This document shows, piece by piece, positions 1,050 to 45,751 of a DNA stretch of 64,000 nucleotides. The stretch lies in NCBI RefSeq assembly GCF_001618005.1, contig NZ_LQXA01000019.1, forward strand, positions 124,001-188,000, read 5' to 3'. Made by a program: the position numbers and the translations under genes. Origin of the DNA: Clavibacter tessellarius (GTDB lineage: Bacteria > Actinomycetota > Actinomycetes > Actinomycetales > Microbacteriaceae). Position 1 is the stretch's first letter; the number at the start of each line of letters is the position of its first letter. The notes beneath the pieces were generated by a model that searched no databases, was not told the DNA's origin, and saw nothing but the letters and a program-made list of their open reading frames with translations.

Positions 1050-1922
1050 GTGGACGACACCGCATCCGCCCGCCCGGCCGTCACCGCTCCCGCGCCGCCC
1101 GCCGCCGAGCATCCTGCCACCGAGCGTCCGATCCCCGCGCCACGCCTCCGCGCCGAGGGCGTCACGCTCGCCTACGACCGCCGCGTGATCTCCGAGGCGC
1201 TCGACGTCGATGTGCCCGACGGCTCGTTCACGGTCATCGTCGGCCCGAACGCGTGCGGCAAGTCCACCCTGCTGCGCGCGCTGTCGCGCCTGCTCGCGCC
1301 GACGGCCGGCAGCGTGCTCCTCGACGACCGGCCGCTCGCGTCGTACCGGGCGAAGGAGGCGGCGCGGATCATCGGACTCCTCCCGCAGAGCGCGATCGCG
1401 CCCGACGGCATCACGGTCGCCGACCTGGTGGCGCGCGGCCGCTTCCCGCACCAGAACCTCATCCGCCAGTGGACGGCGACCGACGAGGACGCCGTGCAGC
1501 GGGCGATGGCGGACACGGGAGTGGCCGACCTCGCGGACCGCCACGTCGACGAGCTCTCCGGCGGCCAGCGCCAGCGGGTGTGGGTCGCGATGGCGCTCGC
1601 GCAGCAGACGCCCGTGCTGCTCCTCGACGAGCCGACGACGTTCCTCGACATCGCCCACCAGATCGAGCTGCTCGACCTCCTCGCCGACCTGCACCGCGGC
1701 GGCAGCACGATCGTCGCCGTGCTCCACGACCTGAACCACGCCGCGCGCTACGCCGACCACCTCATCGTGATGGGCGACGGCCGCGTCGTCGCGTCCGGCG
1801 CCCCGCACGAGATCGTGACCGCGGAGCTCGTCGAGCAGGTCTTCGGGCTGCCCTGCCTCGTGATCGACGACCCCGTGTCCCACACGCCGCTCATCGTGCC
1901 GCGCGGGGGCCGCTGGGCCTGA
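1050..1922 (+). CDS. Iron-siderophore ABC transporter ATP-binding protein
   Basis: Cytoplasmic ATPase that powers the FecCD permease encoded just upstream. Walker A is G-P-N-A-C-G-K-S-T at about residues 65-73 (Ala where Gly is usual), the signature L-S-G-G-Q-R-Q-R at about 169, and Walker B L-L-L-D-E-P at about 190, followed by the switch His in V-L-H-D-L-N. I chose GTG 1050 because GGGAGG lies 7 nt before it; the frame is open back to 978 across a short GTGCCTGAC tandem repeat, but those codons add only a Pro/Val-rich tail overlapping the permease stop. Length 290 residues is slightly above the family's usual 255-275 because of a disordered N-terminus. Confidence 0.9.
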   Translation: MDDTASARPAVTAPAPPAAEHPATERPIPAPRLRAEGVTLAYDRRVISEALDVDVPDGSFTVIVGPNACGKSTLLRALSRLLAPTAGSVLLDDRPLASYRAKEAARIIGLLPQSAIAPDGITVADLVARGRFPHQNLIRQWTATDEDAVQRAMADTGVADLADRHVDELSGGQRQRVWVAMALAQQTPVLLLDEPTTFLDIAHQIELLDLLADLHRGGSTIVAVLHDLNHAARYADHLIVMGDGRVVASGAPHEIVTAELVEQVFGLPCLVIDDPVSHTPLIVPRGGRWA

Positions 1923-1952
1923 GATCCGGGACCCGAGGCCCGAGGGCGGCGG

Positions 1953-2375
1953 TCAGCCGGCGGCCGGCGCCGGCGCGATCGACACCATCCAGTCGATCCC
2001 GAAGCGGTCGGTGCACATGCCGAACCGGTCGCCCCACGGCGCCACCTCGAGCGGCAGCACGACCGTGCCGTCCGCCGTCAGCGCGTCCCACCAGCCGCCG
2101 AGCACCTCGGCGTCGTCGCCCGAGAGCGAGAGCGTGATGGCGGATCCGCTCGGCACGCCCATCGAGGCCGGGGTGTCCGAGGCCATCAGCACGAAGCCCG
2201 CGTCGGAGGTCAGCTGGCCGTGCATGATCTTGTCGGCCTCCGCCGGGTCCGGGCTCATGCCCTGCTCGCCGAACGTGCTCAGCGCGAGCTCGCCGCCGAA
2301 GACCCCCTGGTAGAAGCGCAGCGCCTCGGCCGCCTGGTCGCGGAAGGACAGGTACGGGTTCATGATCGCGGACAT
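1953..2375 (-). CDS. VOC-family PhnB-like protein
   Basis: 140-residue glyoxalase/bleomycin-resistance fold protein of the PhnB type. It opens with the typical N-P-Y-L-S-F and A-x-x-A-L-R-F-Y-x-x-V-F-G-G-E, and closes with W-G-D-R-F-G-M-C-T-D-R-F-G-I-D-W-M. Members bind metal in a beta-alpha-beta-beta-beta cup; the substrate of this group is not known and PhnB itself is not needed for phosphonate breakdown. Start ATG 2375 has GAGGAG 8 nt upstream; the frame is open further upstream only as an antisense shadow of the neighbouring gene. Convergent with the siderophore ATPase. Confidence 0.85.
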   Translation of the reverse strand: MSAIMNPYLSFRDQAAEALRFYQGVFGGELALSTFGEQGMSPDPAEADKIMHGQLTSDAGFVLMASDTPASMGVPSGSAITLSLSGDDAEVLGGWWDALTADGTVVLPLEVAPWGDRFGMCTDRFGIDWMVSIAPAPAAG

Positions 2376-2485
2376 GGGGGCGCTCCTCGGCTGGCGGGCC
2401 CCGCGGTCGCGGGGACCTGTGGGTCCCGATCCTGCTCCTCCCGCAGTCGGCGCGCACCGTGCCCGCGCGAGAGGGTCGTGAGCGG

Positions 2486-3514
2486 CTAGAGGCCCTGGAT
2501 CCGCACGCCCGCGTCCCCGTCGAGGGTCACGCGCCAGCTCACGCTGAACCGCACGTCCTCGTCGAGGTCCTTGACGCTGCCGTCGTACAGCGAGCGGACG
2601 GGCACCCGGATGTGCGCGGTTCCGACCGTGGACGGCACGACCCAGTCGAGGTCGGCGGGGTCGTCGCTCGCGGGGCGCAGCGTGATCTCGGGCATGGCCG
2701 TCATCGTCCACACCGGCGGGTCGGTGATGCGGTCGCGGATCGCCTTCCCGAACGGGCAGCCGGACGGGAAGAGCACGGCCTGCGTGGTGCACGCGGTGAG
2801 GTACGACTCGACCTCGCCCTGCACGGAGTCCACGAGCTCCTGCGTCGGCTCGGCGTCGACGCGGGCGGGCACGACGCTGCCGGGGTCCGTGACCGCCACG
2901 TCGGTCTCCTGCGCCTCGAGGAACGACGACGAGTGGTCGAGGGCAAGGGTGCTCGGCGCGAGCACGAGGTACGTGGATCCGGCGCCCGCGGCCGCGTCGC
3001 CGCCCGCCGTCGCGGAGACGGCGAGCCCGTTCGCGGTGAAGGTGGCGGCGTGCCGGAGCTCGAGGTCGACGGCCGCGACCGGGCTCGTCGCGAACTCCCA
3101 CCGGCCGAAGAGGCCGAGCGCCGCAGGCGCCTCCCGCACGCGGAAGGCGGTGGATCCGGGTCCCGAGGGCAGCGTGTACGCGTACGTGACCACACGCTCG
3201 CCCTCCGCGCCGTCGGGCGCCCGCTCGTCGGAGACGAGCTCGACGTCGGCGAGGCCGGGCAGGGCGCGGTCGTCGAGGAGCGCGCGGCTCCCGTCGTCGG
3301 GCAGGACGACTCCGGGGGTGGCGAGGGCGTCGCGGCTGTCCTCGCGGGCGAGCGCGTCGAGGTAGGAGCGCACGAACCCGTGGGCGCTGAAGACGGTGTG
3401 GTTGAGCGTCGCGACCGTGCCGGCGAACGCCCCGAGGAGCAGGGCCGCGAGCACCGACCAGAGGACGACGGCCCGACGCAGCTCGCCGCGCGCGTCGACG
3501 GCGGGGCTCGGCAT
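2486..3514 (-). CDS. Hypothetical membrane-anchored protein
   Basis: 342-residue protein I do not recognise. One N-terminal membrane segment (about residues 14-36) is preceded by a short basic cytoplasmic tail; the rest is a polar extracytoplasmic region rich in beta-type sequence, with two cysteines close together near residue 255 that could form a disulphide. Two similar stretches (each giving a charged reading followed by predicted strands) suggest a duplicated NTF2-like or Ig-like fold, but that is a guess. ATG 3514 has an AGGA 8 nt upstream; ATG 3523 is an alternative giving three more residues. Transcribed divergently from the helicase gene at 3645. Confidence 0.7.
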   Translation of the reverse strand: MPSPAVDARGELRRAVVLWSVLAALLLGAFAGTVATLNHTVFSAHGFVRSYLDALAREDSRDALATPGVVLPDDGSRALLDDRALPGLADVELVSDERAPDGAEGERVVTYAYTLPSGPGSTAFRVREAPAALGLFGRWEFATSPVAAVDLELRHAATFTANGLAVSATAGGDAAAGAGSTYLVLAPSTLALDHSSSFLEAQETDVAVTDPGSVVPARVDAEPTQELVDSVQGEVESYLTACTTQAVLFPSGCPFGKAIRDRITDPPVWTMTAMPEITLRPASDDPADLDWVVPSTVGTAHIRVPVRSLYDGSVKDLDEDVRFSVSWRVTLDGDAGVRIQGL

Positions 3515-3644
3515 GCGGATCATCCTACGGGCGGGGGATCCGCGACCGGCCGGGGCGGGCCCGGGGTAGATTCGAGTGCGCATCCGCGCCGCGCCGCCGC
3601 CCTCGATGCGCGCCGCATCCACCCCGAACCGCCAGGAGCCCCGC

Positions 3645-4946
3645 GTGAGCACGGTCCCCCTCTCCCCGGAGCAGGCCGCCGTCTTCCAGGCCATCGAGGG
3701 CACGCGCGACCACATCTTCGTCACGGGTCGCGCCGGCACCGGCAAGTCGACCCTCCTCACGCACCTGTCGTGGAACACCGAGAAGCAGATCGTGATCTGC
3801 GCGCCCACCGGGGTCGCCGCGCTGAACGTGGGCGGGCAGACCATCCACTCGCTGTTCAAGCTGCCCATCGGCGTCATCGCCGACGAGGAGATCGAGCAGA
3901 CCGGCGAGCTGCGGAAGCTCCTCAACACCATCGACACGCTCGTCATCGACGAGGTCTCCATGGTCAACGCCGACCTCGTCGACGCCATCGACCGCAGCCT
4001 CCGCCAGGCGCGCCACAAGAAGGACGTGCCGTTCGGCGGCGTGCAGGTCGTGCTGTTCGGGGATCCGTACCAGCTGGCGCCCGTGCCCGGCGACGGCGAC
4101 GAGCGCGCCTACTTCGCCGACCGCTACCGCTCCATGTGGTTCTTCGACGCGAAGGTGTGGGAGGAGGCGCAGCTCCGCATCTACGAGCTCACCGAGATCC
4201 ACCGGCAGCACGAGGAGGCGTTCAAGGAGATGCTCAACGCCGTGCGCCACGGGCGGGTCACGGCGGAGATCGCGGGCGTGCTGAACGCCGCGGGCGCGCG
4301 CCCGGCGCCCACCGACGGCGCCATCACGCTCGCCACGCGCAACGACACCGTCAACCGGATCAACGCCGAGGCGCTCAAGCGCCTGCCCGGCCGCTCGCTC
4401 ACCGCCACCGCCGACGTCACGGGCGACTTCGGCGGCCGCACCTACCCGGCCGACGAGAAGCTCGACCTCAAGATCGGCGCGCAGGTGATGTTCCTCCGCA
4501 ACGACGTCGACCAGCGCTGGGTGAACGGATCCGTCGGGGTCGTCACGCGCATCGACACGAACGTGTACGTCGAGCTCGACGGCGTCGTGCACGAGGTCGA
4601 GCCGGTCACGTGGGAGAAGCACAAGTACTCGTACTCGCCCACCACCAAGCAGCTGCGGCGCGACGTCGTGGCCGACTTCACGCAGTTCCCGCTGCGGCTC
4701 GCGTGGGCGGTCACGATCCACAAGTCGCAGGGCAAGACCTACGACCGCGCCATCGTCGACCTCGGCGCGCGCGTGTTCAGCCCCGGGCAGACCTATGTGG
4801 CGCTCAGCCGGATCACCGACATCGGCGGCCTGTACCTCACGCGGCCGCTGCGGCCGGGCGACATCATCGTCGACGAGAACGTGCGGCGGTTCATGAGCGA
4901 GGCGACGCGGATCCGCGTGACGCCCGCGGTGGCGCCGGCGCCGTAG
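3645..4946 (+). CDS. PIF1/RecD2-like superfamily 1 DNA helicase
   Basis: 433-residue helicase unwinding DNA 5'-3' by family analogy. Walker A is T-G-R-A-G-T-G-K-S-T-L-L near residue 27, motif Ia V-I-C-A-P-T-G-V-A-A, motif II V-I-D-E-V-S-M-V near residue 105, motif III F-G-D-P-Y-Q-L-A-P-V, and the C-terminal UvrD-like block contains A-V-T-I-H-K-S-Q-G-K-T and Y-V-A-L-S-R-I. GTG 3645 was chosen because AGGAG sits 6 nt before it and the ATPase core begins only about 20 residues later; upstream in-frame codons from 3576 look like leader sequence. Likely role in replication or recombination maintenance; it stands alone and not in a phage context. Confidence 0.9.
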   Translation: MSTVPLSPEQAAVFQAIEGTRDHIFVTGRAGTGKSTLLTHLSWNTEKQIVICAPTGVAALNVGGQTIHSLFKLPIGVIADEEIEQTGELRKLLNTIDTLVIDEVSMVNADLVDAIDRSLRQARHKKDVPFGGVQVVLFGDPYQLAPVPGDGDERAYFADRYRSMWFFDAKVWEEAQLRIYELTEIHRQHEEAFKEMLNAVRHGRVTAEIAGVLNAAGARPAPTDGAITLATRNDTVNRINAEALKRLPGRSLTATADVTGDFGGRTYPADEKLDLKIGAQVMFLRNDVDQRWVNGSVGVVTRIDTNVYVELDGVVHEVEPVTWEKHKYSYSPTTKQLRRDVVADFTQFPLRLAWAVTIHKSQGKTYDRAIVDLGARVFSPGQTYVALSRITDIGGLYLTRPLRPGDIIVDENVRRFMSEATRIRVTPAVAPAP

Positions 4947-27882: not shown

Positions 27883-28083
27883 CTACCGAAAATCGTAATC
27901 CTCGTCCATGCCGCTCGACAACCAAATATCCTCGGCGTCGGACTCGCTCAGCATGTTACTCGACGGGCCGTCTGACCCGGAGTCATGGTCCTCGCCAATA
28001 GTGCAACGACAATCCTCAGCGTACACCGATCCAGGATCATCATCGCGCTCGGTGAACTTCTTATGCTTAGGCCCTGTGGGCAT
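27883..28083 (-). CDS. Small acidic hypothetical protein in island
   Basis: 66 residues, strongly acidic after a basic first dozen, with two cysteines (D-C-R-C) and an ending E-D-Y-D-F-R. GAGGA lies about 6 nt before ATG 28081-28083. I do not recognise it with certainty. It is transcribed away from the HEPN-ATPase pair and sits at the left island limit. Confidence 0.45.
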   Translation of the reverse strand: MPTGPKHKKFTERDDDPGSVYAEDCRCTIGEDHDSGSDGPSSNMLSESDAEDIWLSSGMDEDYDFR

Positions 28084-28523
28084 CTGGTCCTCGACCTCGT
28101 TTGGGCTCCGTCAGTAATCGTGGGGAGGAGCCAACACCGCCTGAACCAGAGCTTAGGGCCGTAGTACGACGCCTAAGCCCGGGCCAAATCAAGCTCCCGT
28201 CGCAAGAGTGACCACCCCTCGGTAACATCTCAGCCTCGCGATAGTACGACGGGACTGGTGGGCCGCAAAAAAAGTATCGCCGTACTCATCAAGACCGCCG
28301 CTCGAGCCCCGAAGACCCTCCCACACGCGCTGCTCACCTTACTGTGTCCGTGGGCTAATAGTGTGCCCTTGCTGGTCGGTAGAGAAGAGTGGAGTCGGTC
28401 GTCAGCTCACTCTCGTGCACCCGGCCGCTCTAGGTTCAATAAAGCCGGGTGCCACCCTTATTGGGGGTGCCACAGCTGAGAACTGCTTGTCCTTACTTCA
28501 AGCCTCGAGGCCATACTCGTCAT
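28084..28523. other. Non-coding region upstream of HEPN gene
   Basis: About 440 bp. Includes an inverted repeat GCTTAGG/CCTAAGC (28151-28157 and 28172-28178) with a 14-nt loop, the 7-mer GCTTAGG again at 28065, and the two-hairpin element at 28417-28469. The ORF at 28258-28479 has no ribosome site or recognisable composition and I do not call it. Confidence 0.5.
28417..28469 (+). promoter_or_regulatory. Two consecutive hairpins in HEPN leader
   Basis: First stem: GCACCCGGC (28417-28425) with GCCGGGTGC (28444-28452), 18-nt loop. Second stem follows at once: CACCC (28453-28457) with GGGTG (28465-28469). The pair lies 55-107 nt before ATG 28524 and includes a direct repeat GGGTGCCAC. Could be an attenuator or RNA-binding site for the downstream system. 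Confidence 0.5.
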
Positions 28524-28991
28524 ATGGAACACCCGGTAGCTTTCCTCCCAGAACCCGAATATCTCGCCCGCATAGGTGCCCTTGCGTACACGGTTTCGAG
28601 TGTGGAGTGGATGGTGTTGGGGGACCTTGGCCGCCTTGCCTCCGACTTACCGGATCAGCTGTCGCTGACCGCGCTGGAGTCCAGGACGACGTCCCAGATC
28701 GCGATAGAGATAAAGGCTGCGCTTTCTGAAGTCGCTGCCGGGCCAACAAAAACATACTTGGTTGCCGCATATAGGGCGCTATTTAAGGTGGCCACCATTC
28801 GCAATGATGTTCTGCATGCGCGGCCGGCAACGCATCCGTCAGGGTCGCAGCGTCTTAGTAGGGCGGAGACCGCTAATCAGGCTCCGACGGGAAATCGTTT
28901 CTGGATCGACGACGGGTGGCTCGACGACGCTGTTTCAAGCGTAAACCAGCAATTGAGAAATGTATCTGAAGCCAGGCCGCCGTTCGCGTGA
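28524..28991 (+). CDS. HEPN-domain protein, putative ribonuclease toxin
   Basis: 155 residues, mostly helical. Residues 93-98 read R-N-D-V-L-H, an exact match to the catalytic R-[N/H/D]-x3-H motif of HEPN RNases, followed by A-R-P-A-T-H. The opening L-P-E-P-E-Y-L and V-S-S-V-E-W resemble small actinobacterial proteins of the Cthe_2314-like HEPN group. ATG 28524 was chosen because the domain begins there; upstream in-frame codons overlap the hairpins. No good ribosome site is visible. The ATPase gene follows 87 bp downstream on the same strand and is its probable partner. RNase activity and target are inferred. Confidence 0.7.
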   Translation: MEHPVAFLPEPEYLARIGALAYTVSSVEWMVLGDLGRLASDLPDQLSLTALESRTTSQIAIEIKAALSEVAAGPTKTYLVAAYRALFKVATIRNDVLHARPATHPSGSQRLSRAETANQAPTGNRFWIDDGWLDDAVSSVNQQLRNVSEARPPFA

Positions 28992-29078
28992 CGTCGCGTT
29001 CGTTATCTTCGAATCAGACTACGTTCAACCTCACTTTTTACCTTTTCCGCGAAGTGCCAGCACGGGGGTCGATAACTT

Positions 29079-31280
29079 ATGAAAAAGCTAAAAATAGACT
29101 TTACGAATTGCCACGGTATTCGTCACTTGAAGGCAGATCTTAGCTTCAAGGATGCAAGAGCAACTGCGATTTACGCGCCTAACGGAATGATGAAGACTTC
29201 ATTCGCCCGCGCCTTTAGCGATTTGTCTCGACGGGAGGAGTCGACGGATCACGTATTCCCAGAGCGCGAAAGCTCCAGGACCATCACTGACGAAGATGAT
29301 ACCGCCCTCACGGCGGACCAAGTGGTTGTGATCGTCTCTTATGACGAGGAAATTGGGCCCACGGAGTATACTTCAACGCTCCTTGTGGACAAGGTCCTCC
29401 GCTCGGAGTACGCGGCGATTCAGAGTAAGATTATTGAGTCGAAGGCGGAGCTAATTGCGGCACTCAAGGCGCAAGCTCAAACAAAAAAAGACGTGTCTTC
29501 GGAGCTCTCGATGGCATTCACGCGTGACCGCGAGAGCTTTTTCAAAGCCCTCCTTCGTGTCGAAGATGAAGTTAAAGACGAAGAGTCTCCTTACGCGTGG
29601 TTGCCGTATGACGTTTTATTTGACGACAAAGTTGTTGCACTTCTGGCAACAAAAGACTTTGCCTCATCCCTTGCCAATTATGTCACTCGTTTTAATGAGC
29701 TTTTAGATTCGTCCTCGTATTTTTCCCGAAAAACCTTCAGCTATTACAACGCCGAGACTATCGCGAAAAGCCTGGGTGGAAACGGCTTCTTTGAAGCAAA
29801 GCACTCCGTCATTCTGAATGACGGAGCTGATGGAACCGCGCTGTCGACGCAGGCCCAGCTGGCGGAGTTGATTGCTTCCGAGAAAGAGGCTATTAGCGAC
29901 GACCCGCAACTTCGCAAAACATTCACCGCGATCGAAAGCAAGCTCACTAAAAATATCGAGTCGCGGCGCTTTTTTGACCTCGTGTCGGACCATCAAGAGC
30001 TTCTTCTGGAGCTTGATAATGTTGAGCGCTTTAAGGAGCGTGTCTGGAAGTCTTATTTGAAGGCTAACGAGCCCCTTTATCTGGAAGCAGTATCTCGCTT
30101 TCGAAAGGCAGAATCGCGAAAAGCAGAAATTGAGGCGGAAGCCGGAGCGCAAAGGGGGCAGTGGGAAGATGTTATCGAAATATTCAATCGTCGCTTCTTC
30201 GTTCCGTTCACCTTAATTGCGGAGAACCGCACAAATGTAGTTCTTGGACTTGAGCCGGTCGCTAAGCTCGGTTTTGAATTTGCGGACGGTGGTGACCGAA
30301 CTTCCGTGGACCGCGGAGACCTCTTGGGCGTCCTGAGTACGGGCGAGAAGAAGGCACTTTACATTCTTAATGTTTTATTTGAGGTCGAGCGCCGCAAGGG
30401 GGTGCCGGGTGACACCGTATTTATCGTTGATGATATTGCCGACTCATTTGACTATAAAAACAAGTATGCCATCATTCAGTACCTGAAGGATATCGCCGAG
30501 GTGCCAAATTTTCGCCTTGTGGTCCTTACGCATAACTTCGACTTCTTCCGCACGCTTGAAAGTCGTTTTGTACCTTACAGCCAGTGCCTCATGGGACAAA
30601 GGGCACCAGCGGGGATGGAGCTAGTAAGGGCAGCCGGAATTAAAAATCCTTTTATCAAGGACTTTAAGCCAAACTTCTTTACGGATGCAACCAAACGATC
30701 TGCCGCAATTCCGTTTGTGCGTAATCTACTCGAGTATACACGCGGCGAGGATGATCCTGGATACGTCAAGTTGACGTCTCTCTTGCACTGGAAAGCCGAA
30801 ACCGCCACAGTCACCCAGGCTGATATCGACACTATCTTTAATGACTTATTTTCAACCACTGGCTGCTGGCCGAGGCCGGATGAAAGCGTAACTGAGATGA
30901 TTGGCGAGGAAGCGCAGAAATGCGTCGCTGACGCAGTGACCATGGATCTAGCGAATAAGATCACTTTGTCAATCGCGATTCGTGTTGCTGCAGAAAAGTA
31001 TATGGTCGATAAAATTGCGGATCAGTCGTTTGTTGATGGCTTACGTGCCAATCAGACAGGCCACCTCTTTGCGCATTACAGGAAAAATTTCCCCGACGAT
31101 CGTGACGCAATTCGAACTGTTGACGAAGTGGTGCTGATGACGCCCGAGAATATTCATGTAAACTCGTTTATGTACGAGCCCATACTGGATATGACTGACG
31201 AGCACCTTGTTCGCTTGCTCAAAGATGTAGGCACACTGCAAAAGAGTGTTTCTGGGATCTCTTCAAACTCCAGCTCTTGA
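29079..31280 (+). CDS. ABC-type (AAA_13/PrrC-like) ATPase, putative defence sensor
   Basis: 733 residues. Starts with an ABC head: K-I-D-F-T-N-C-H-G-I and a variant Walker A, A-P-N-G-M-M-K-T at 33-40. A charged, largely helical insert (about 110-380) follows, then signature L-S-T-G-E-K-K-A-L-Y at about 418, Walker B F-I-V-D-D-I-A-D-S-F-D near 447, and switch His in V-L-T-H-N-F-D near 483. After the head is a C-terminal domain of about 240 residues with no motif I know. Layout resembles SMC/RecF-like ATPases of PrrC, RloC and similar systems. Codon use is foreign. No nuclease motif of its own is evident, fitting a partnership with the HEPN protein upstream. Confidence 0.75.
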   Translation: MKKLKIDFTNCHGIRHLKADLSFKDARATAIYAPNGMMKTSFARAFSDLSRREESTDHVFPERESSRTITDEDDTALTADQVVVIVSYDEEIGPTEYTSTLLVDKVLRSEYAAIQSKIIESKAELIAALKAQAQTKKDVSSELSMAFTRDRESFFKALLRVEDEVKDEESPYAWLPYDVLFDDKVVALLATKDFASSLANYVTRFNELLDSSSYFSRKTFSYYNAETIAKSLGGNGFFEAKHSVILNDGADGTALSTQAQLAELIASEKEAISDDPQLRKTFTAIESKLTKNIESRRFFDLVSDHQELLLELDNVERFKERVWKSYLKANEPLYLEAVSRFRKAESRKAEIEAEAGAQRGQWEDVIEIFNRRFFVPFTLIAENRTNVVLGLEPVAKLGFEFADGGDRTSVDRGDLLGVLSTGEKKALYILNVLFEVERRKGVPGDTVFIVDDIADSFDYKNKYAIIQYLKDIAEVPNFRLVVLTHNFDFFRTLESRFVPYSQCLMGQRAPAGMELVRAAGIKNPFIKDFKPNFFTDATKRSAAIPFVRNLLEYTRGEDDPGYVKLTSLLHWKAETATVTQADIDTIFNDLFSTTGCWPRPDESVTEMIGEEAQKCVADAVTMDLANKITLSIAIRVAAEKYMVDKIADQSFVDGLRANQTGHLFAHYRKNFPDDRDAIRTVDEVVLMTPENIHVNSFMYEPILDMTDEHLVRLLKDVGTLQKSVSGISSNSSS

Positions 31281-31349
31281 CGGTGTCGCCCAAGCGCCTT
31301 GAGTGGTTGAGTTTGGCAATCAAAACTCGAATTGATATTGATATTGGTG

Positions 31350-31423
31350 TGGAGCGAGTGACGGGAATCGAACCCGCGCTATCAGCTTGGGAAGCTGAAG
31401 TTCTACCATTGAACTACACTCGC
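31350..31423 (-). tRNA. tRNA-Gly (anticodon CCC)
   Basis: 74 nt including encoded CCA. Acceptor arms GCGAGTG (5', ending at 31423) and CACTCGC pair fully; the anticodon stem TCAGC/GCTGA encloses loop TTCCCAA, anticodon CCC; T-arm GCGGG-TTCGATT-CCCGT. Marks the right edge of the low-GC island, with its 3' end facing the island. Confidence 0.95.
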
Positions 31424-31492
31424 GCGACCGGCCATCAGCCGGGTCGAGACCACAGCCTAGCAAGAGTCCGGCCGGGCGCCACCCCGCGCCGG

Positions 31493-31498
31493 TAGGCT
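31493..31498 (+). promoter_or_regulatory. -10 element of leaderless promoter
   Basis: TAGGCT, 6 nt before GTG 31505 of dcd. Confidence 0.6.
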
Positions 31499-31504
31499 CC
31501 TGCC

Positions 31505-32110
31505 GTGCTCCTCTCCGACCGTGACATCACCGCCGAGCTCGACGCCGGACGAGTGGCCCTCGACCCCTACGACCCCGGGATGCTGCAGCCCGCGAGCATC
31601 GACGTGCGCATCGACCGCTTCTTCCGGCTGTTCGACAACCACAAGTACCCCTACATCGACCCCGCCGAGGACCAGCCCGAGCTGACGCGCCTCATCGAGT
31701 CGAAGCCGGGGGAGCCGTTCATCCTGCACCCGGGCGAGTTCGTCCTGGGGTCCACGTTCGAGCTGGTCACGCTGCCCGACGACGTCGCCGCGCGCCTCGA
31801 GGGCAAGAGCTCGCTCGGCCGCCTCGGCCTCCTCACGCACTCCACCGCCGGCTTCATCGACCCCGGGTTCTCCGGCCACGTCACGCTGGAGCTGTCGAAC
31901 GTCGCGACGCTGCCCATCAAGCTCTGGCCCGGGATGAAGATCGGCCAGCTCTGCTTCTTCCGCCTGTCGTCGCCCGCCGAGAAGCCCTACGGATCCGGCG
32001 AGTACGCCTCCCGCTACCAAGGCCAGCGCGGCCCCACGGCCTCCCGCTCGCACCTCAACTTCGTGCACACCGACGTGACGGTGACGGACGCGGGGCAGTC
32101 GGGGGAGTAG
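31505..32110 (+). CDS. dcd: dCTP deaminase
   Basis: 201-residue trimeric enzyme deaminating dCTP on the way to dUMP; actinobacterial members are often bifunctional deaminase/dUTPases. Active-site block [11 protein letters not shown] (about 99-109), with A-G-F-I-D-P-G-F-x-G following; the N-terminal L-L-S-D-R-D-I and P-A-S-I-D-V-R are also typical. GTG start is fixed by the TAGGCT box 6 nt upstream and by alignment with the family's first residues. First core gene after the island. Confidence 0.95.
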
Positions 32111-39817: not shown

Positions 39818-40390
39818 TCAGACCGCGGGCACGGCCGCCGCATCCGGCGAGCCGGCGTGCGCCGGGTGCTCCGGGTACAGCAGCGGCAGCTGCAGCGTGA
39901 GCCACGGGCTGAAGGCCCACGGCGTGTGGGCGACCGCGGGGATCAGCTCCTCCGGATCCGCCCACCGGTACTCGCCGACCTCCTCGGGTCGCGGATCCAC
40001 CGGCGTGGCCGCCACGGCGCGGAACACCGGGCAGATCTCGTTCTCGACGATGCCCGCGGCGTCGGTCGCGCGGTAGCGGAAGTCGGGCAGCACGAGCTCG
40101 ACCGAGGCGAGGGTGAGCCCGAGCTCCTGCTCGGCGCGGCGGTGCACGGCCTCGAGCATGTCCTCGCCCGGTGCGGGGTGCCCGCAGAACGAGTTCGTCC
40201 AGACGCCGGGCCAGGTGAGCTTGCCGATCGCGCGGCGCGTGACGAGGATCCTGCCCTCCGCATCGAACACGTGGCACGAGAACGCGAGGTGCAGCGCGGT
40301 GTCGCGGGTGTGGACCGTCGCCTTCGGCGCCGTCCCGATGGTCTCGCCGTCGTCGTCCAGGAGGACGACGAGCTCGGTGTGCTGTGACAT
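39818..40390 (-). CDS. idi: Isopentenyl-diphosphate delta-isomerase
   Basis: 190-residue type I (Nudix) isomerase converting IPP to DMAPP, the starter for the carotenoid operon next door. The catalytic Cys is in N-S-F-C-G-H-P and the catalytic Glu in E-N-E-I-C-P; the Nudix-like helix has A-V-H-R-R-A-E-Q-E-L. AGGGAG is 3-4 nt before ATG 40390. Divergent from crtE with 44 bp between starts, so both may share control. Confidence 0.95.
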   Translation of the reverse strand: MSQHTELVVLLDDDGETIGTAPKATVHTRDTALHLAFSCHVFDAEGRILVTRRAIGKLTWPGVWTNSFCGHPAPGEDMLEAVHRRAEQELGLTLASVELVLPDFRYRATDAAGIVENEICPVFRAVAATPVDPRPEEVGEYRWADPEELIPAVAHTPWAFSPWLTLQLPLLYPEHPAHAGSPDAAAVPAV

Positions 40391-40422
40391 GCGCTCCCTG
40401 CTTTCCGTTACCGCCTCGATGT

Positions 40423-40428
40423 TAGGTT
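40423..40428 (+). promoter_or_regulatory. -10 element of leaderless crt operon promoter
   Basis: TAGGTT, 6 nt before GTG 40435 of crtE, inside the 44-bp gap to idi. Confidence 0.6.
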
Positions 40429-40434
40429 TCATCC

Positions 40435-41505
40435 GTGGACGCCACCAACCTCGCTGCCGTCTCCACATCGAGGCAGGCCCACGTGAACAACGTGCTGGAT
40501 GCGTTCTTCGCCCGCTCCCTCGTCCGCGCCGAGGCCATGGGCGACGAGTACGTGAAGCTGTGGCGCACGCTGGAGTCCAACACGGCCGGCGGCAAGCGCT
40601 TCCGTCCCCGCATGGTCATGGCCGCGTACGACGGCCTCGGCGGCCAGGACGTGCAGGCCGCGGCCCACGTCGGCGCCGCGTTCGAGATGCTCCACACCGC
40701 GCTCATCGTGCACGACGACGTCATCGACCGCGACTTCACCCGGCGCGGCGGCCCCAACGTCTCCGGTGCCTACCGCGACATCGCCACCACGCAGGGCCTG
40801 CCCCAGCCGCTCGCCGAGCACCGCGGCATGTCGGCCGCCGTCATCGCGGGCGACCTCGCGCTCGTCAACGCGTACCGCCTCATCGACGCGAGCGGCGTGC
40901 GCGACCTCACCCGGTCGCACCTGCTCGAGATCCTCGACGACGCCGTGTTCGCGTCCGCCGCGGGCGAGCTCATCGACGTCGAGTTCTCGCTCACGGCGGA
41001 CGTGCCGAGCGTCGAGGAGATCCTCCGCATGGAGCGCCTCAAGACCGCCGTCTACTCGTTCGAGGCGCCGCTGCAGGCCGGCGCCGTGCTCGCGGGCGCG
41101 CGCCCCGAGGTCGTGGCCGCGCTCGGCGACTTCGGCCGGGACATCGGCATCGCCTACCAGGTGGTCGACGACGTGCTCGGCGTCTTCGGCGATGAGGAGG
41201 AGACCGGCAAGACGAACCTCGGCGACCTCCGCGAGGGCAAGCGCACCGTGCTCATCGCCCACGCCGTCCGCTCCTCGGAGTGGCGGGAGATCAGCGCGCT
41301 CATCGGCAAGGACGACCTCTCCCGCGGCGAGGCGGCCCTCGTGCGCTCGGTGCTGGAGAGCTCCGGCGCCCGCGCGTTCGCCGAGGGCGTGGCGCGCGAC
41401 CTCGCGACGGCCGCGTGCGCGCGCCTCGAGGACCCGGTCGTGCCGGAGGCGCTCCGCCGGGAGCTCGCGCCCGTCGCCGAGTCCGTGCTCGGGCGCATCC
41501 GATGA
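40435..41505 (+). CDS. crtE: Geranylgeranyl diphosphate synthase
   Basis: 356-residue trans-prenyltransferase making GGPP. The first Asp-rich motif is D-D-V-I-D (about 94-98), the second D-D-V-L-G-V-F-G-D (about 244). G-K-R-F-R-P near 55 binds IPP. GTG 40435 is set by a TAGGTT box 6 nt before it. First gene of a six-gene carotenoid operon; its stop overlaps the crtB start as ATGA. Exact chain length is inferred from context. Confidence 0.93.
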   Translation: MDATNLAAVSTSRQAHVNNVLDAFFARSLVRAEAMGDEYVKLWRTLESNTAGGKRFRPRMVMAAYDGLGGQDVQAAAHVGAAFEMLHTALIVHDDVIDRDFTRRGGPNVSGAYRDIATTQGLPQPLAEHRGMSAAVIAGDLALVNAYRLIDASGVRDLTRSHLLEILDDAVFASAAGELIDVEFSLTADVPSVEEILRMERLKTAVYSFEAPLQAGAVLAGARPEVVAALGDFGRDIGIAYQVVDDVLGVFGDEEETGKTNLGDLREGKRTVLIAHAVRSSEWREISALIGKDDLSRGEAALVRSVLESSGARAFAEGVARDLATAACARLEDPVVPEALRRELAPVAESVLGRIR

Positions 41506-44153
41506 CGCGTCGCCTGCCCGGCCGCCGGCCCGCCGCCCCCGAGGCGCCCACGGGCCTCGACAAGTACGACCGGGTGGCGCAGGACACGGCCTCCGTCGTG
41601 ATCCGCAGCTACTCCACCTCCTTCGGCCTCGCCTCGCGCCTCCTCGGCGCGGACGTGCGCCAGCACATCGAGAACGTGTACGCGCTCGTGCGCATCGCCG
41701 ACGAGATCGTCGACGGCGCGGCGGCCGGTGCCGGCGTGGATCCCGCGCACGTCGAGGACCTGCTCGACGCCCTCGAGCAGGAGACCGAGGACGCGATGCT
41801 GCGCGGCTACAGCACGAACCTCGTCGTGCACGCGTTCGCCATCACGGCCCGCCGCGCCGGCTTCGGCGCCGAGCTCACCGCGCCGTTCTTCGCCTCCATG
41901 CGCATGGACCTGCGGCGCATGGAGCACACGCCCGCCTCCTTCACGGAGTACGTCTACGGATCCGCGGAGGTCGTCGGCCTCATGTGCCTCCGCGCGTTCC
42001 TCATGGGCCACGCCACCACGCGGCCCGAGCGGATCCGGTTCGAGGAGGGCGCCAAGCGCCTGGGCGCCGCGTTCCAGAAGGTCAACTTCCTGCGCGACCT
42101 CGCCGCCGACCACGACGCGCTCGGCCGCAGCTACTTCCCGGGCGTCGACGTCGCGTCCTTCTCGGAGGCCGACAAGGAGCGCATCCTCGACGACATCGAC
42201 CACGACCTCCGCATGTCCGGCGCCGTGATCCCCGACCTCCCCGCCTCCAGCCGCCGCGCCGTCGCGCTCGCGCAGGGCCTGTTCGCCGAGCTCGCCGTGC
42301 GGCTCCGCGACACCCCGGCGGCCGAGCTGGCGCGCACGCGCGTGCGGGTGCCGGATCCCGTGAAGGCCCGCATCGCGCTCGCCGCCGCCACGGGCGCCGA
42401 GCCCTCGGGCGTCGACGGCCGCCTCGTCCGCCGCTCGCGCGCCCCCCGCGTCCACGGCGCGCGCTCCACGCCCGCGTCCCGCGCGGAGACCGACGACCAC
42501 GACGACCACGACCACCGCCCCGCCCCGTCCGACCCCGAGCAGCAGGAGAGCGCCATGACCGCACCCACCGCCATCGTGATCGGCGGCGGGATCGCCGGCC
42601 TCGCCTCCGCCGCGCTCCTCGCCCGCGACGGCTACCGCGTCACCCTCGTCGAGGGCCGCGACGAGGTCGGCGGCCGCGCCGGCTCCTGGGAGCGCGACGG
42701 CTTCCGCTTCGACCTCGGCCCCAGCTGGTACCTCATGCCCGAGGTGTTCGACCACTTCTTCAAGCTGATGGGCACGAGCGCGGCCGAGCAGCTCGACCTG
42801 GTGCGCCTCCCCGGCTACCGCGTGCTCTTCGAGGGCGACCCGGATCCCATCGACATCCGCGACTCCCGCGAGGCCAACCTCGACCTGTTCGAGAGCGTCG
42901 AGCCCGGATCCCGCCCCGCGATGGCCCGCTACCTCGACTCCGCGAAGGAGGTCTACGAGATGGCGAAGAAGCGCTTCCTCTACACGACCTTCGCCGACTA
43001 CCGCCCGCTGCTGAAGCGCGACATCGTCACCCGCACCGGCACGCTCGGGAAGCTCCTGCTCACGCCGCTCGAGACGCACGTGGCCCGCTATGTGAAGGAC
43101 CGCCGTCTCCGCCAGATCCTCGGCTACCCGGCCGTCTTCCTCGGCTCCTCGCCCAAGCTCGCGCCGAGCATGTACCACCTGATGAGCCACCTCGACCTCG
43201 AGGACGGCGTGCTCTACCCGCAGGGCGGCCTCATCACCGTGATCGACGCCATCGAACGGGTGGCCCGTGCCGAGGGCGTCGAGATCCGCACGGGAGCGCC
43301 CGTCTCGCGCATCCTCACCGAGCCGACGAAGGCCGGCAAGGCGCGGGCGCGCGGCGTGCAGATCACCACCGACGCCGGCACCGAGACGCTCGACGCCGAC
43401 GTGGTCGTCTCCACCGCCGACCTGCACCACACCGAGACCGAGCTGCTCCCCGAGGCGTTCCGCACCTACCCGCAGGCGTACTGGGACAAGGCCACCGCCG
43501 GCCCCGGCGCCGTGCTCGTCTACCTCGGCGTGAAGGGCGAGCTGCCCGAGCTGCACCACCACACGCTGCTGTTCACGGAGGACTGGGACGAGAACTTCTC
43601 CCGCATCTTCCCGCCGAAGGGCGGCGCGACCTCGGTACCGGATCCCGCCAGCATCTACGTCTGCAAGCCCAGCGCCACCGACGGCTCGGTCGCGCCCGCG
43701 GGCCACGAGAACGTCTTCATCCTCGTGCCGATCCCCGCCGACCCGACCATCGGCCGCGGCGGCATCGACGGCGCCGGGGACGCGCGCGTCGAGGAGATCG
43801 CCGACCGCGCCATCCAGCAGATCAGCGACTGGGCCGGGATCCCCGACCTGGCCGAGCGCATCGTGCTCCGCCGCACCTCGGGCCCCGGCGACTTCGCCGC
43901 CGACCTGCACTCGTGGACGGGCACCATCCTCGGGCCCGCGCACACGCTCTCGCAGTCGGCCATGTTCCGTGCCGGCAACACGAGCAAGCGGGTCGACGGG
44001 CTGCACTACGCCGGCGGATCCACCATCCCCGGCATCGGCCTGCCCATGTGCCTCATCAGCGCGGAGATCCTCGTGAAGCGCCTCCGCGGCGACACGTCGA
44101 CCGGCCCCGGCGCCGAGCCGCTCGTGCGCACGGTCGGCCGCCCGGTGGTCTGA
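41502..44153 (+). CDS. crtB-crtI: Phytoene synthase-phytoene desaturase continuous ORF (CrtB-CrtI)
   Basis: 883 codons with no internal stop. Residues 1 to about 300 are phytoene synthase: D-E-I-V-D near 66 and R-D-L-A-A-D-H-D-A-L-G-R near 196 are the two Asp-rich motifs. A Pro/Asp/His-rich linker of about 50 residues leads straight into a full CrtI. CrtB therefore has no stop of its own: translation from ATG 41502 should give a fusion, while CrtI alone can start at ATG 42555, which has its own ribosome site. CrtB joins two GGPP to phytoene. ATGA overlap with crtE. Confidence 0.85.
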   Translation: MTRRLPGRRPAAPEAPTGLDKYDRVAQDTASVVIRSYSTSFGLASRLLGADVRQHIENVYALVRIADEIVDGAAAGAGVDPAHVEDLLDALEQETEDAMLRGYSTNLVVHAFAITARRAGFGAELTAPFFASMRMDLRRMEHTPASFTEYVYGSAEVVGLMCLRAFLMGHATTRPERIRFEEGAKRLGAAFQKVNFLRDLAADHDALGRSYFPGVDVASFSEADKERILDDIDHDLRMSGAVIPDLPASSRRAVALAQGLFAELAVRLRDTPAAELARTRVRVPDPVKARIALAAATGAEPSGVDGRLVRRSRAPRVHGARSTPASRAETDDHDDHDHRPAPSDPEQQESAMTAPTAIVIGGGIAGLASAALLARDGYRVTLVEGRDEVGGRAGSWERDGFRFDLGPSWYLMPEVFDHFFKLMGTSAAEQLDLVRLPGYRVLFEGDPDPIDIRDSREANLDLFESVEPGSRPAMARYLDSAKEVYEMAKKRFLYTTFADYRPLLKRDIVTRTGTLGKLLLTPLETHVARYVKDRRLRQILGYPAVFLGSSPKLAPSMYHLMSHLDLEDGVLYPQGGLITVIDAIERVARAEGVEIRTGAPVSRILTEPTKAGKARARGVQITTDAGTETLDADVVVSTADLHHTETELLPEAFRTYPQAYWDKATAGPGAVLVYLGVKGELPELHHHTLLFTEDWDENFSRIFPPKGGATSVPDPASIYVCKPSATDGSVAPAGHENVFILVPIPADPTIGRGGIDGAGDARVEEIADRAIQQISDWAGIPDLAERIVLRRTSGPGDFAADLHSWTGTILGPAHTLSQSAMFRAGNTSKRVDGLHYAGGSTIPGIGLPMCLISAEILVKRLRGDTSTGPGAEPLVRTVGRPVV
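42555..44153 (+). CDS. crtI: Phytoene desaturase (internal start within CrtB-CrtI ORF)
   Basis: 532 residues, the normal CrtI length, desaturating phytoene to lycopene. FAD-binding G-G-G-I-A-G-L at 8-14, then L-V-E-G-R-D-E-V-G-G-R; C-terminal G-G-S-T-I-P-G-I-G-L-P-M family signature. AGGAGAG lies 6 nt before ATG 42555, so independent initiation is likely although the frame is open from crtB. The stop overlaps crtYe as TGATG. Confidence 0.9.
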   Translation: MTAPTAIVIGGGIAGLASAALLARDGYRVTLVEGRDEVGGRAGSWERDGFRFDLGPSWYLMPEVFDHFFKLMGTSAAEQLDLVRLPGYRVLFEGDPDPIDIRDSREANLDLFESVEPGSRPAMARYLDSAKEVYEMAKKRFLYTTFADYRPLLKRDIVTRTGTLGKLLLTPLETHVARYVKDRRLRQILGYPAVFLGSSPKLAPSMYHLMSHLDLEDGVLYPQGGLITVIDAIERVARAEGVEIRTGAPVSRILTEPTKAGKARARGVQITTDAGTETLDADVVVSTADLHHTETELLPEAFRTYPQAYWDKATAGPGAVLVYLGVKGELPELHHHTLLFTEDWDENFSRIFPPKGGATSVPDPASIYVCKPSATDGSVAPAGHENVFILVPIPADPTIGRGGIDGAGDARVEEIADRAIQQISDWAGIPDLAERIVLRRTSGPGDFAADLHSWTGTILGPAHTLSQSAMFRAGNTSKRVDGLHYAGGSTIPGIGLPMCLISAEILVKRLRGDTSTGPGAEPLVRTVGRPVV

Positions 44154-44497
44154 TGGGCCTCCTCTACCTCGCGGCCCTCCTCGTCACCCTCGGCTGCATG
44201 ATGCTCGTCGACCGCCGCTGGCGCCTGTTCTTCTGGCGCGACCGCACCGCCGCGGCCGTCACCACGCTCGTGGGCGTCGCCTTCTTCCTCGCGTGGGACG
44301 TGGCCGGCATCTCGCAGGGCATCTTCTTCCGCGGCGAGACGCCGTTCATGACGGGCATCCTCGTGGGCCCCGAGCTCCCGCTCGAGGAGGTCTTCTTCCT
44401 CACGCTGCTCTGCTACCTCACGATGAACCTCGTCAACGGGTTCAGCCGCCTCGCCGACCACCACGTCGCCCGGGCGAGGGAGCGCGCGAACCGATGA
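44153..44497 (+). CDS. crtYe: C50 carotenoid cyclase subunit
   Basis: 114 residues, three helices, the first of two small subunits of the heterodimeric C50 carotenoid cyclase (CrtYe/LbtB type). The P-L-E-E-V-F-F motif near residue 75 carries the acidic pair expected in the active site. One-base TGATG overlap with crtI and ATGA overlap with the next gene. Ring type (beta, epsilon or gamma) cannot be read from sequence alone. Confidence 0.88.
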   Translation: MGLLYLAALLVTLGCMMLVDRRWRLFFWRDRTAAAVTTLVGVAFFLAWDVAGISQGIFFRGETPFMTGILVGPELPLEEVFFLTLLCYLTMNLVNGFSRLADHHVARARERANR

Positions 44498-44862
44498 GCT
44501 ACCTCGTGCTCGACCTGCTGTTCCTCGCTCCCGTCGCGGTCGTCGGATTCCTGTTCCGTCGCCTGCTGCTGCGCGAGGCCAACGCCGTGCCGTACGGATC
44601 CAGCCGCTTCGACTACCCCGAGTACTACTGGTACCGGCGGATGCCCGTCGCGATCCTGCTCGTGATGACGCTCCTCTTCGACAACATCATGATCAAGGTC
44701 GGCCTCGTCGGGTACGACCCCGACAAGCTCGTGGGCCTCGTGCTCGGCTACGCGCCCATCGAGGACTTCGCCTACGCGATCGCGGCCCTCGTGCTGCTGC
44801 CGGCCGTCTGGTACCTGCTGCGCCGCCGCCGCAGCGTCTCCGGCATCGAAGCGCATGAGTGA
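44494..44862 (+). CDS. crtYf: C50 carotenoid cyclase subunit
   Basis: 122 residues, three helices, second cyclase subunit (CrtYf/LbtC type). P-I-E-D-F-A-Y near residue 89 is the counterpart of the acidic motif in CrtYe. Starts within ATGA of the preceding stop and ends 8 nt inside crtEb, so the two subunits are made together. Acts in the membrane on the product of CrtEb. Confidence 0.88.
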   Translation: MSYLVLDLLFLAPVAVVGFLFRRLLLREANAVPYGSSRFDYPEYYWYRRMPVAILLVMTLLFDNIMIKVGLVGYDPDKLVGLVLGYAPIEDFAYAIAALVLLPAVWYLLRRRRSVSGIEAHE

Positions 44863-45751
44863 CGTGCGGGCCCGGCCCGGCGCCGCGGAGATGATCCGCA
44901 CCATCGCGCTGTCGTCCCGCCCGCTCTCCTGGGTCAACACGGCCTTCCCGTTCGCGGCCGCCTACCTCACGGTCACGCGCGAGCTCGACCTCACGGCGGT
45001 GCTCGGCACGCTCTACTTCCTCATCCCGTACAACCTCGCGATGTACGGCATCAACGACGTCTTCGACTACGAGTCCGACATGCGGAACCCCCGGAAGGGC
45101 GGAGTGGAGGGCGCGGTGCTGGCGCGCGCGATGCACCGGCCGGTGCTGATCGCGGTGCTCGTCACGAACGTGCCGTTCCTCGCGTACCTCGTGGCGGTGG
45201 GATCCGCGGCGAGCCTCGCCGTGCTCGCCGTGAGCGTGTTCGCCGTGATCGCGTACTCGCTGAAGGGCCTCCGCTTCAAGGAGCGGCCCATCCTCGACTC
45301 GCTCACCTCGAGCACGCACTTCACGTCGCCCGCGGTCTTCGGCATCGTGCTCGCGGGCGGGACGTTCACGCCCGGGCTGTGGGCGATCCTCGCGGCGTTC
45401 TTCCTCTGGGGCGTCGCCTCGCACGCGTTCGGCGCCGTGCAGGACATCGTGGCCGACCGCGAGGGCGGCATCTCCTCCATCGCGACCGTGCTCGGCGGCG
45501 CCGCCACCGTGCGGATCGCGGTGCTCGCCTACGCCGCGGCCGGCGTGGCGATGCTGTTCACGGGCTTCCCTGGGATCGTCGCGGCCGCGCTCGTGATCCC
45601 GTACATCCTCAGCACCGCGCCGTTCTGGTCGATCCGCGACGAGGACGCGGAGGCGGCGAACCGCGGTTGGCGGCGCTTCCTCGGCCTCAACTTCCTCTCC
45701 GGCTTCGTGGTGACGATGCTGCTCATCGCGTACTGGCTCGCCACGCCCTGA
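44855..45751 (+). CDS. crtEb: Lycopene elongase (UbiA-type prenyltransferase)
   Basis: 298-residue membrane prenyltransferase adding two dimethylallyl units to lycopene to give a C50 skeleton. The first Asp-rich motif N-D-V-F-D-Y-E-S-D is near residue 68 and the second D-I-V-A-D-R-E near 197. About eight helices. Overlaps crtYf by 8 nt; last gene of the operon. The product feeds CrtYe/CrtYf. Confidence 0.9.
   Translation: MSDVRARPGAAEMIRTIALSSRPLSWVNTAFPFAAAYLTVTRELDLTAVLGTLYFLIPYNLAMYGINDVFDYESDMRNPRKGGVEGAVLARAMHRPVLIAVLVTNVPFLAYLVAVGSAASLAVLAVSVFAVIAYSLKGLRFKERPILDSLTSSTHFTSPAVFGIVLAGGTFTPGLWAILAAFFLWGVASHAFGAVQDIVADREGGISSIATVLGGAATVRIAVLAYAAAGVAMLFTGFPGIVAAALVIPYILSTAPFWSIRDEDAEAANRGWRRFLGLNFLSGFVVTMLLIAYWLATP

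What the first reader, a model, noticed from the sequence alone, without database searches (positions are those of the whole stretch)
41502..44153. Phytoene synthase and phytoene desaturase form one open reading frame
CrtB has no stop codon: a roughly 50-residue Pro/Asp/His-rich linker leads in frame into CrtI. CrtI also has its own ribosome site and ATG at 42555. The cell may make both an 883-residue CrtB-CrtI fusion and free CrtI, which would channel phytoene directly and set the enzyme ratio. In most actinobacteria these are separate proteins.
Basis: partly seen in the sequence, partly recalled or inferred. Interest (0 to 1): 0.65.

Follow-up and report, generated by a model that had tools for sequence, protein, structure and literature searches.

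The report
Fused pigment enzymes, second start retained
In this actinobacterium two consecutive carotenoid enzymes, phytoene synthase and phytoene desaturase, are encoded as one protein, and a conserved start site inside the gene very likely still makes the second enzyme on its own as well.

Summary
One 883-codon frame (41502-44153) encodes a complete CrtB, a 53-residue linker and a complete CrtI, with no stop between them. In 73% GC DNA an open frame proves little alone, but 16 of 18 genomes of the genus (unnamed; by recall Clavibacter) keep both in one frame although linker length changed at least ten times among them. The two exceptions are not sisters and end crtB at a TGA overlapping the crtI ATG (ATGA); one comes from a frameshift-prone assembly. 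Stop-start overlap is the norm in relatives (52 of 63 family loci; 73 of 80 named loci, partly the same genomes), so fusion is derived. Fusions also occur in genus g45 (13 of 15 genomes, no ATG in the linker; perhaps Rathayibacter, where a crtBI gene is in print) and in one genome of another family. The crtI start is under nucleotide-level constraint: a 79-nt invariant block around ATG 42555 is twice the next longest, with zero synonymous diversity, an AGGAG site and weak structure. Best reading: every CrtB is made as a CrtB-CrtI fusion, with extra free CrtI from the internal start. Both products and substrate channelling await protein data.

The parts
41502..42395 (+). CrtB (phytoene synthase) domain, residues 1-298 of the fusion; its ATG overlaps the crtE stop (ATGA)
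   Evidence: Pfam SQS_PSY residues 34-284, 2e-31; only SQS_PSY match in the genome
42396..42554 (+). In-frame linker, residues 299-351, no stop; head conserved, middle variable in length, end (SDPEQQESA) invariant in the 16 fused genomes
   Evidence: pLDDT about 24-30 in a low-confidence model
42529..42607 (+). 79-nt stretch invariant in the 16 fused genomes, around the CrtI start; next longest run in the gene is 36 nt
   Evidence: zero synonymous diversity in 12-codon windows covering residues 343-366 against a mean of 0.146
42544..42548 (+). Shine-Dalgarno-like AGGAG, 6 nt before ATG
42555..44153 (+). CrtI (phytoene desaturase) domain, 532 residues plus stop, with its own ATG
   Evidence: TIGR02734 residues 357-873, 8.6e-164
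40435..41505 (+). crtE, polyprenyl (GGPP-type) synthase; start codon not established
   Evidence: Pfam polyprenyl_synt 1e-53
44153..44497 (+). lycopene cyclase-domain protein, CrtYe-like
   Evidence: TIGR03462 8.7e-16
44494..44862 (+). lycopene cyclase-domain protein, CrtYf-like
   Evidence: TIGR03462 5.5e-14
44855..45751 (+). UbiA prenyltransferase, CrtEb (lycopene elongase)-like
   Evidence: NF009608/PRK13105 2.6e-144
39818..40468 (-). idi, isopentenyl-diphosphate isomerase, divergent
   Evidence: NF002995 6.6e-80, TIGR02150 1e-45

Best explanation
crtB and crtI are fused in frame, so ribosomes starting at 41502 make one 883-residue protein with a phytoene synthase domain, a flexible linker and a phytoene desaturase domain. 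The old crtI ribosome site and ATG (42555) were kept inside the fused gene, so ribosomes entering there make free CrtI (532 residues). The cell would thus make no free CrtB, and CrtI in excess of CrtB. The fusion arose in the ancestor of the genus from the usual ATGA/GTGA stop-start overlap, by a frame change in the linker. Shown here: the fused frame, its conservation, its derived origin, and nucleotide-level constraint on the internal start. Inferred: that both products are made. Not shown: channelling or any gain in flux.
For: Fused frame in 16 of 18 genus genomes. Linker length changed at least 12 times over all 18 genomes on the rpoB tree, and at least 2 of these changes break the frame; among the 16 fused genomes alone at least 10 changes are needed, in-frame by the way that group is defined. 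My arithmetic: 10 or more in-frame changes out of 12 has p about 0.0005 if one third of indels were multiples of 3, about 0.02 if one half were. Relatives: stop-start overlap in 52 of 63 family loci and 73 of 80 named loci; fused in 2 of 63 (both g45) and 0 of 80 (the sets share some genomes and are best hits, not random draws). g45: 13 of 15 genomes fused, no ATG and no SD-like motif in the linker of these 13. G391, another family, is also fused with no Met in the linker. Internal start: 79-nt invariant run around ATG 42555, next longest 36; zero synonymous diversity in three consecutive windows against a mean of 0.146; AGGAG spaced 6 nt, and local folding weaker than at about 98% of positions in the ORF. 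In the two split genomes the same conserved ATG overlaps the crtB stop, where the crtI start is expected.
Against: No protein data. The middle of the linker evolves with little constraint on residues (pN/pS 0.75). Two of 18 genomes lack the frame, so the fusion is not indispensable. Slippage in short repeats could bias indels towards multiples of 3. Three other in-frame ATGs in the ORF (41796, 41982, 42960) have SD-like sites as long or longer, so the motif alone does not prove initiation. One other 12-codon window, at residue 223, also has no synonymous difference. The 111-nt region 42505-42615 folds only slightly less well than its shuffles (z 1.37).
Confidence: 0.7

Rival explanations
1. 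Only the fusion matters: the internal ATG is a relic of the separate crtI gene and gives little or no free CrtI.
For: In g45 and G391 the fused frame exists without any ATG in the linker, and in the 13 g45 linkers without an SD-like motif. Active translation of crtB through the site could hinder initiation there (inference).
Against: The site lies in the most strictly conserved stretch of the gene, synonymous positions included, as expected if it is used.
Confidence: 0.2
2. The fusion is an accident of GC-rich DNA: losing the stop does no harm, the linker is cut by proteases, and the enzymes act as separate proteins.
For: Long spurious ORFs cover this region. The linker middle is near neutral and has very low pLDDT, in a poor model. 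Two of 18 genomes are split.
Against: At least 12 length changes in the linker with as few as 2 losing the frame, and compact fusions in g45.
Confidence: 0.15
3. Sequencing or assembly error joins the two frames in this genome.
For: Frameshifts that look like assembly errors do exist in this set: G007 has broken rpoB and crtE frames.
Against: The same open frame, with different linkers, in 16 genomes.
Confidence: 0.01

Closest known systems
crtBI of Rathayibacter toxicus FH-79, 'bifunctional phytoene synthase/oxidoreductase' (PMC5552033; passages seen)
   Same: Same family, same domain order by name, and the same set of six operon genes: crtEb, crtYf, crtYe, crtBI, crtE and an isopentenyl-diphosphate isomerase.
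   Different: Reported there as a gene annotation. If g45 is Rathayibacter (no call names it), its linker has no internal ATG or SD-like motif, unlike the window.
CrtIB fusion of Verrucomicrobiota rhodopsin operons (PMC10284914; passages seen; [quoted passage not shown]
   Same: Phytoene synthase and desaturase joined in one bacterial protein.
   Different: Named CrtIB, so by name the opposite order; retinal operon, another phylum; so probably an independent event.
Trifunctional CrtIBY of thraustochytrids (PMC10016063 passages; PMC5924542 listing only)
   Same: CrtI and CrtB on one chain; reported as the sole carotenoid route in Aurantiochytrium limacinum.
   Different: Eukaryote, order I-B-Y by name, includes a cyclase.
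SpaO long and short isoforms in Salmonella (PMC13059759; listing and start of abstract only)
   Same: One bacterial gene gives a full-length protein and its C-terminal part as a shorter variant (that the short one comes from an internal start is recalled).
   Different: Unrelated protein; not a fusion of two enzymes.

Membership tests
Natural CrtB-CrtI fusion protein | Complete phytoene synthase domain | tested here: met
   SQS_PSY profile 1-260 of 263; DEIVD (67-71) and DLAAD (199-203) present, their aspartates invariant in the 29 aligned fusions (motif meaning recalled)
Natural CrtB-CrtI fusion protein | Complete CrtI-type desaturase domain | tested here: met
   TIGR02734 profile 1-500 of 504, over its cut-off
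Natural CrtB-CrtI fusion protein | One uninterrupted frame, conserved in relatives | tested here: met
   16 of 18 genus genomes
Natural CrtB-CrtI fusion protein | One polypeptide with both activities in cells | not testable with these tools
   No protein or enzyme data
Gene with internal in-frame start giving a C-terminal isoform | SD and start codon inside the frame, conserved beyond coding needs | tested here: met
   AGGAG at 6 nt; 79-nt invariant block; zero synonymous diversity
Gene with internal in-frame start giving a C-terminal isoform | Short product observed | not testable with these tools
   No protein data
C50 cyclic carotenoid (decaprenoxanthin-type) crt operon | crtE, crtB, crtI, two CrtYe/Yf-type cyclase proteins and a CrtEb-type elongase in order | tested here: met
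   Family matches and order; that this set defines the type is recalled
C50 cyclic carotenoid (decaprenoxanthin-type) crt operon | C50 pigment made | not testable with these tools
   No chemistry

The most novel reading that the evidence does not exclude
The gene is a built-in two-product device. In frame it gives a CrtB-CrtI fusion plus free CrtI. A suitable small change of frame in the repeat-rich linker turns it into separate CrtB and CrtI, because crtB then ends at a TGA overlapping the crtI ATG (ATGA), as seen in 2 of 18 genomes. The lineage could thus switch between fused and separate enzymes without losing either, perhaps even within a population.
Probability: 0.2. Interest if true: 0.6.

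Novelty: new variant of a known kind. Interest (0 to 1): 0.42.

Why it matters
Phytoene is a membrane-bound, water-insoluble intermediate, and whether CrtB hands it directly to CrtI is a practical question in pigment engineering (recalled). Here evolution fused the pair three times in actinobacteria on the simplest reading, in one lineage keeping a likely separate supply of the second enzyme and in others not. That gives natural fused, fused-plus-free and separate versions of related enzymes to compare for flux and intermediates. It also suggests how an ATGA overlap lets a lineage move between separate and fused genes by one frame change.

Tried and rejected
Sequencing error in the window: rejected, 16 genomes agree.

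G002 and G007 as the ancestral split state: judged unlikely. They are not sisters, and starred branches force two changes; from the topology a split ancestor would need at least three gains, so the margin is small. G007 is frameshift-prone (rpoB and crtE broken). G002 shows no other broken frame among 32 gene-like ORFs with hits (13,026 aa), so its split may be real. Reading the CrtI frame upstream of the ATG in these two does not by itself tell direction.

One common fusion origin for g1 and g45: on CrtB+CrtI the joint clade is not rejected (p-AU 0.447, 62 rows), although the best tree puts unfused g71 next to g1. On rpoB it is rejected (p-AU 0.000135, 30 rows) and g71 is sister to g1 with support 100/99. 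One older fusion with several losses is less parsimonious but not excluded.

Structure prediction: poor (mean pLDDT 57 for the window protein with 29 sequences, 69 for a g45 fusion with 13), so no statement on domain packing. Foldseek with the g45 model matched carotenoid desaturases and CrtM-like synthases, as expected.

Baseline for multiples of 3 among gaps outside gene-like ORFs: 34 of 222; inside gene-like ORFs non-multiples also dominate there (104 of 436 were multiples), which shows that these blastn gaps are noisy, so I did not rest the argument on them.

Order-level survey: 89 genomes, 65 with a match; fusions were sought by equal open frames of the CrtB and CrtI rows, by eye; beside the window only G391 stood out. 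Class-level survey: 89 genomes, 72 with a match; only 3, the window's among them, had full-length CrtI of this subfamily at 60% identity or more (plus a contig-end fragment in G421), and only the window was fused; most other rows are distant CrtI without a CrtB row, so it says little. The match lists end before all matches; in the family search 251 of 299 genomes had a match, but junctions were read for 63 loci only, chosen from the best hits.

Literature. In the listings shown (25 of 44, 15 of 28) and the passages read in five papers I saw no report of a CrtB-CrtI fusion in Clavibacter; the library holds open-licence papers only.
Full report
OBSERVATION. The frame 41502-44153 is open for 883 codons. 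It holds a complete phytoene synthase domain (SQS_PSY, residues 34-284) and a complete CrtI-family desaturase (TIGR02734, residues 357-873). Between them lies a linker of 53 residues (299-351) with no stop. ATG 42555 (residue 352) has AGGAG six bases upstream. Because the DNA is about 73% GC, long open frames are cheap: other frames of 1243 and 950 aa overlap the same region. Conservation had to decide.

SURROUNDINGS. The fusion sits in a carotenoid operon: idi (divergent), crtE, crtB-crtI, two lycopene cyclase-domain proteins (CrtYe/CrtYf-like) and a CrtEb-like prenyltransferase. The neighbouring junctions overlap (crtE and crtB share ATGA at 41502-41505; crtI/crtYe, crtYe/crtYf and crtYf/crtEb overlap too). 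In a simple scan of six starts, crtB and crtEb have no Shine-Dalgarno-like site and crtI has the longest match. The genome has one SQS_PSY match only, so CrtB should come from this frame alone.

GENUS. Of 18 genomes in the genus, 16 keep CrtB and CrtI in one frame. The linker stretch has nine different lengths among these 16. On an rpoB tree at least ten changes of length are needed among the 16 and at least 12 over all 18, of which at least two change the frame. The two split genomes, G002 and G007, end crtB at a TGA that overlaps the crtI ATG. They are not sisters, and starred branches force two changes, so the fused state is most simply ancestral in the genus and was lost twice. G007 has broken frames in rpoB and crtE and its split may be an assembly error; G002 shows no other broken frame among 32 gene-like ORFs with hits.

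FAMILY AND BEYOND. Junctions were read for 63 family loci outside the genus: 52 stop-start overlaps (39 ATGA, 13 GTGA), 9 other separate arrangements, 2 fused, both in genus g45. Of 80 named loci from genome contigs, 73 are overlaps, 7 otherwise separate, 0 fused (the two sets share some genomes). In g45, 13 of 15 genomes are fused; in the other 2 the parts lie on different contigs. In those 13 the stretch from the end of CrtB to the CrtI glycine motif has no ATG and no SD-like motif; the only GTG codons lie at its two ends. A third fusion, again without Met in the linker, is in G391 of another family of the order; two other genomes of its genus, G330 and G363, show CrtB and CrtI in different open frames. 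On rpoB, unfused g71 is sister to the window's genus (100/99), an unfused genome (G147) is sister to g45 (96/99), and joining g1 and g45 is rejected (p-AU 0.000135). On CrtB+CrtI joining them is not rejected (p 0.447). The simplest account is three independent fusions.

THE INTERNAL START. Across the 16 fused genomes the longest invariant nucleotide run in the gene is 79 nt, 42529-42607, around ATG 42555; the next is 36 nt. Twelve-codon windows starting at residues 343, 349 and 355 have no synonymous difference, against a mean pS of 0.146 (sd 0.079); one other window, at residue 223, also has none. Local folding around the ATG (-4.5 kcal/mol) is weaker than at about 98% of positions in the ORF, although a 111-nt stretch is only slightly less structured than its shuffles (z 1.37). 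Three other in-frame ATGs have SD-like sites as long or longer, so the motif alone would not convince. In the two split genomes the same ATG overlaps the crtB stop. The pattern fits selection on an active initiation site and not on the peptide alone. Upstream, the linker head is constrained as protein (pN/pS 0.14), the middle hardly (0.75).

MECHANISM. Most likely, translation from 41502 gives CrtB-CrtI and translation from 42555 gives free CrtI. Steps shown: frame, conservation, constraint. Steps inferred: both products, CrtI in excess. Not shown: channelling. AlphaFold models were too weak to speak on domain contact.

KNOWN OR NEW. A crtBI gene is listed in Rathayibacter toxicus in an operon of the same make-up (PMC5552033, passages), and g45 may be that genus, though no call names it. 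A CrtIB fusion is reported as the first natural one in Verrucomicrobiota (PMC10284914, passages). CrtIBY is known in thraustochytrids (PMC10016063, passages). So the kind is known. What appears new, as far as the listings and passages and the reading reach, is its presence through this genus, the retained and strictly conserved internal crtI start, the likely return to ATGA in two genomes, and the repeated origin.

VERDICT. A real, conserved gene fusion, not an artefact; a new variant of a known kind; the two-product idea is well supported by sequence and needs protein data.

Noticed in passing
window 28001-32000: A stretch of about 54% GC in a 73% GC window, next to tRNA-Gly(ccc) at 31350-31423 (-), looks like a small genomic island. 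It carries a 733-aa ATPase (29079-31280 +) matching PADLOC PDC-S46, a candidate anti-phage protein, over residues 1-720 (E 4.5e-265), and a 180-aa ORF (28449-28991 +) without a PADLOC or Pfam match.
   Followed up: partly
L204 (G391), minus strand 1640-4312: CrtB-CrtI fusion without internal Met in a different family of the order; two other genomes of its genus look unfused. The survey of that genus failed on the server.
   Followed up: partly
L208, L020 (G007): Single-contig genome with broken frames in rpoB and crtE as well as in the crtB-crtI linker: a likely error-prone assembly.
   Followed up: partly
   Followed up: no
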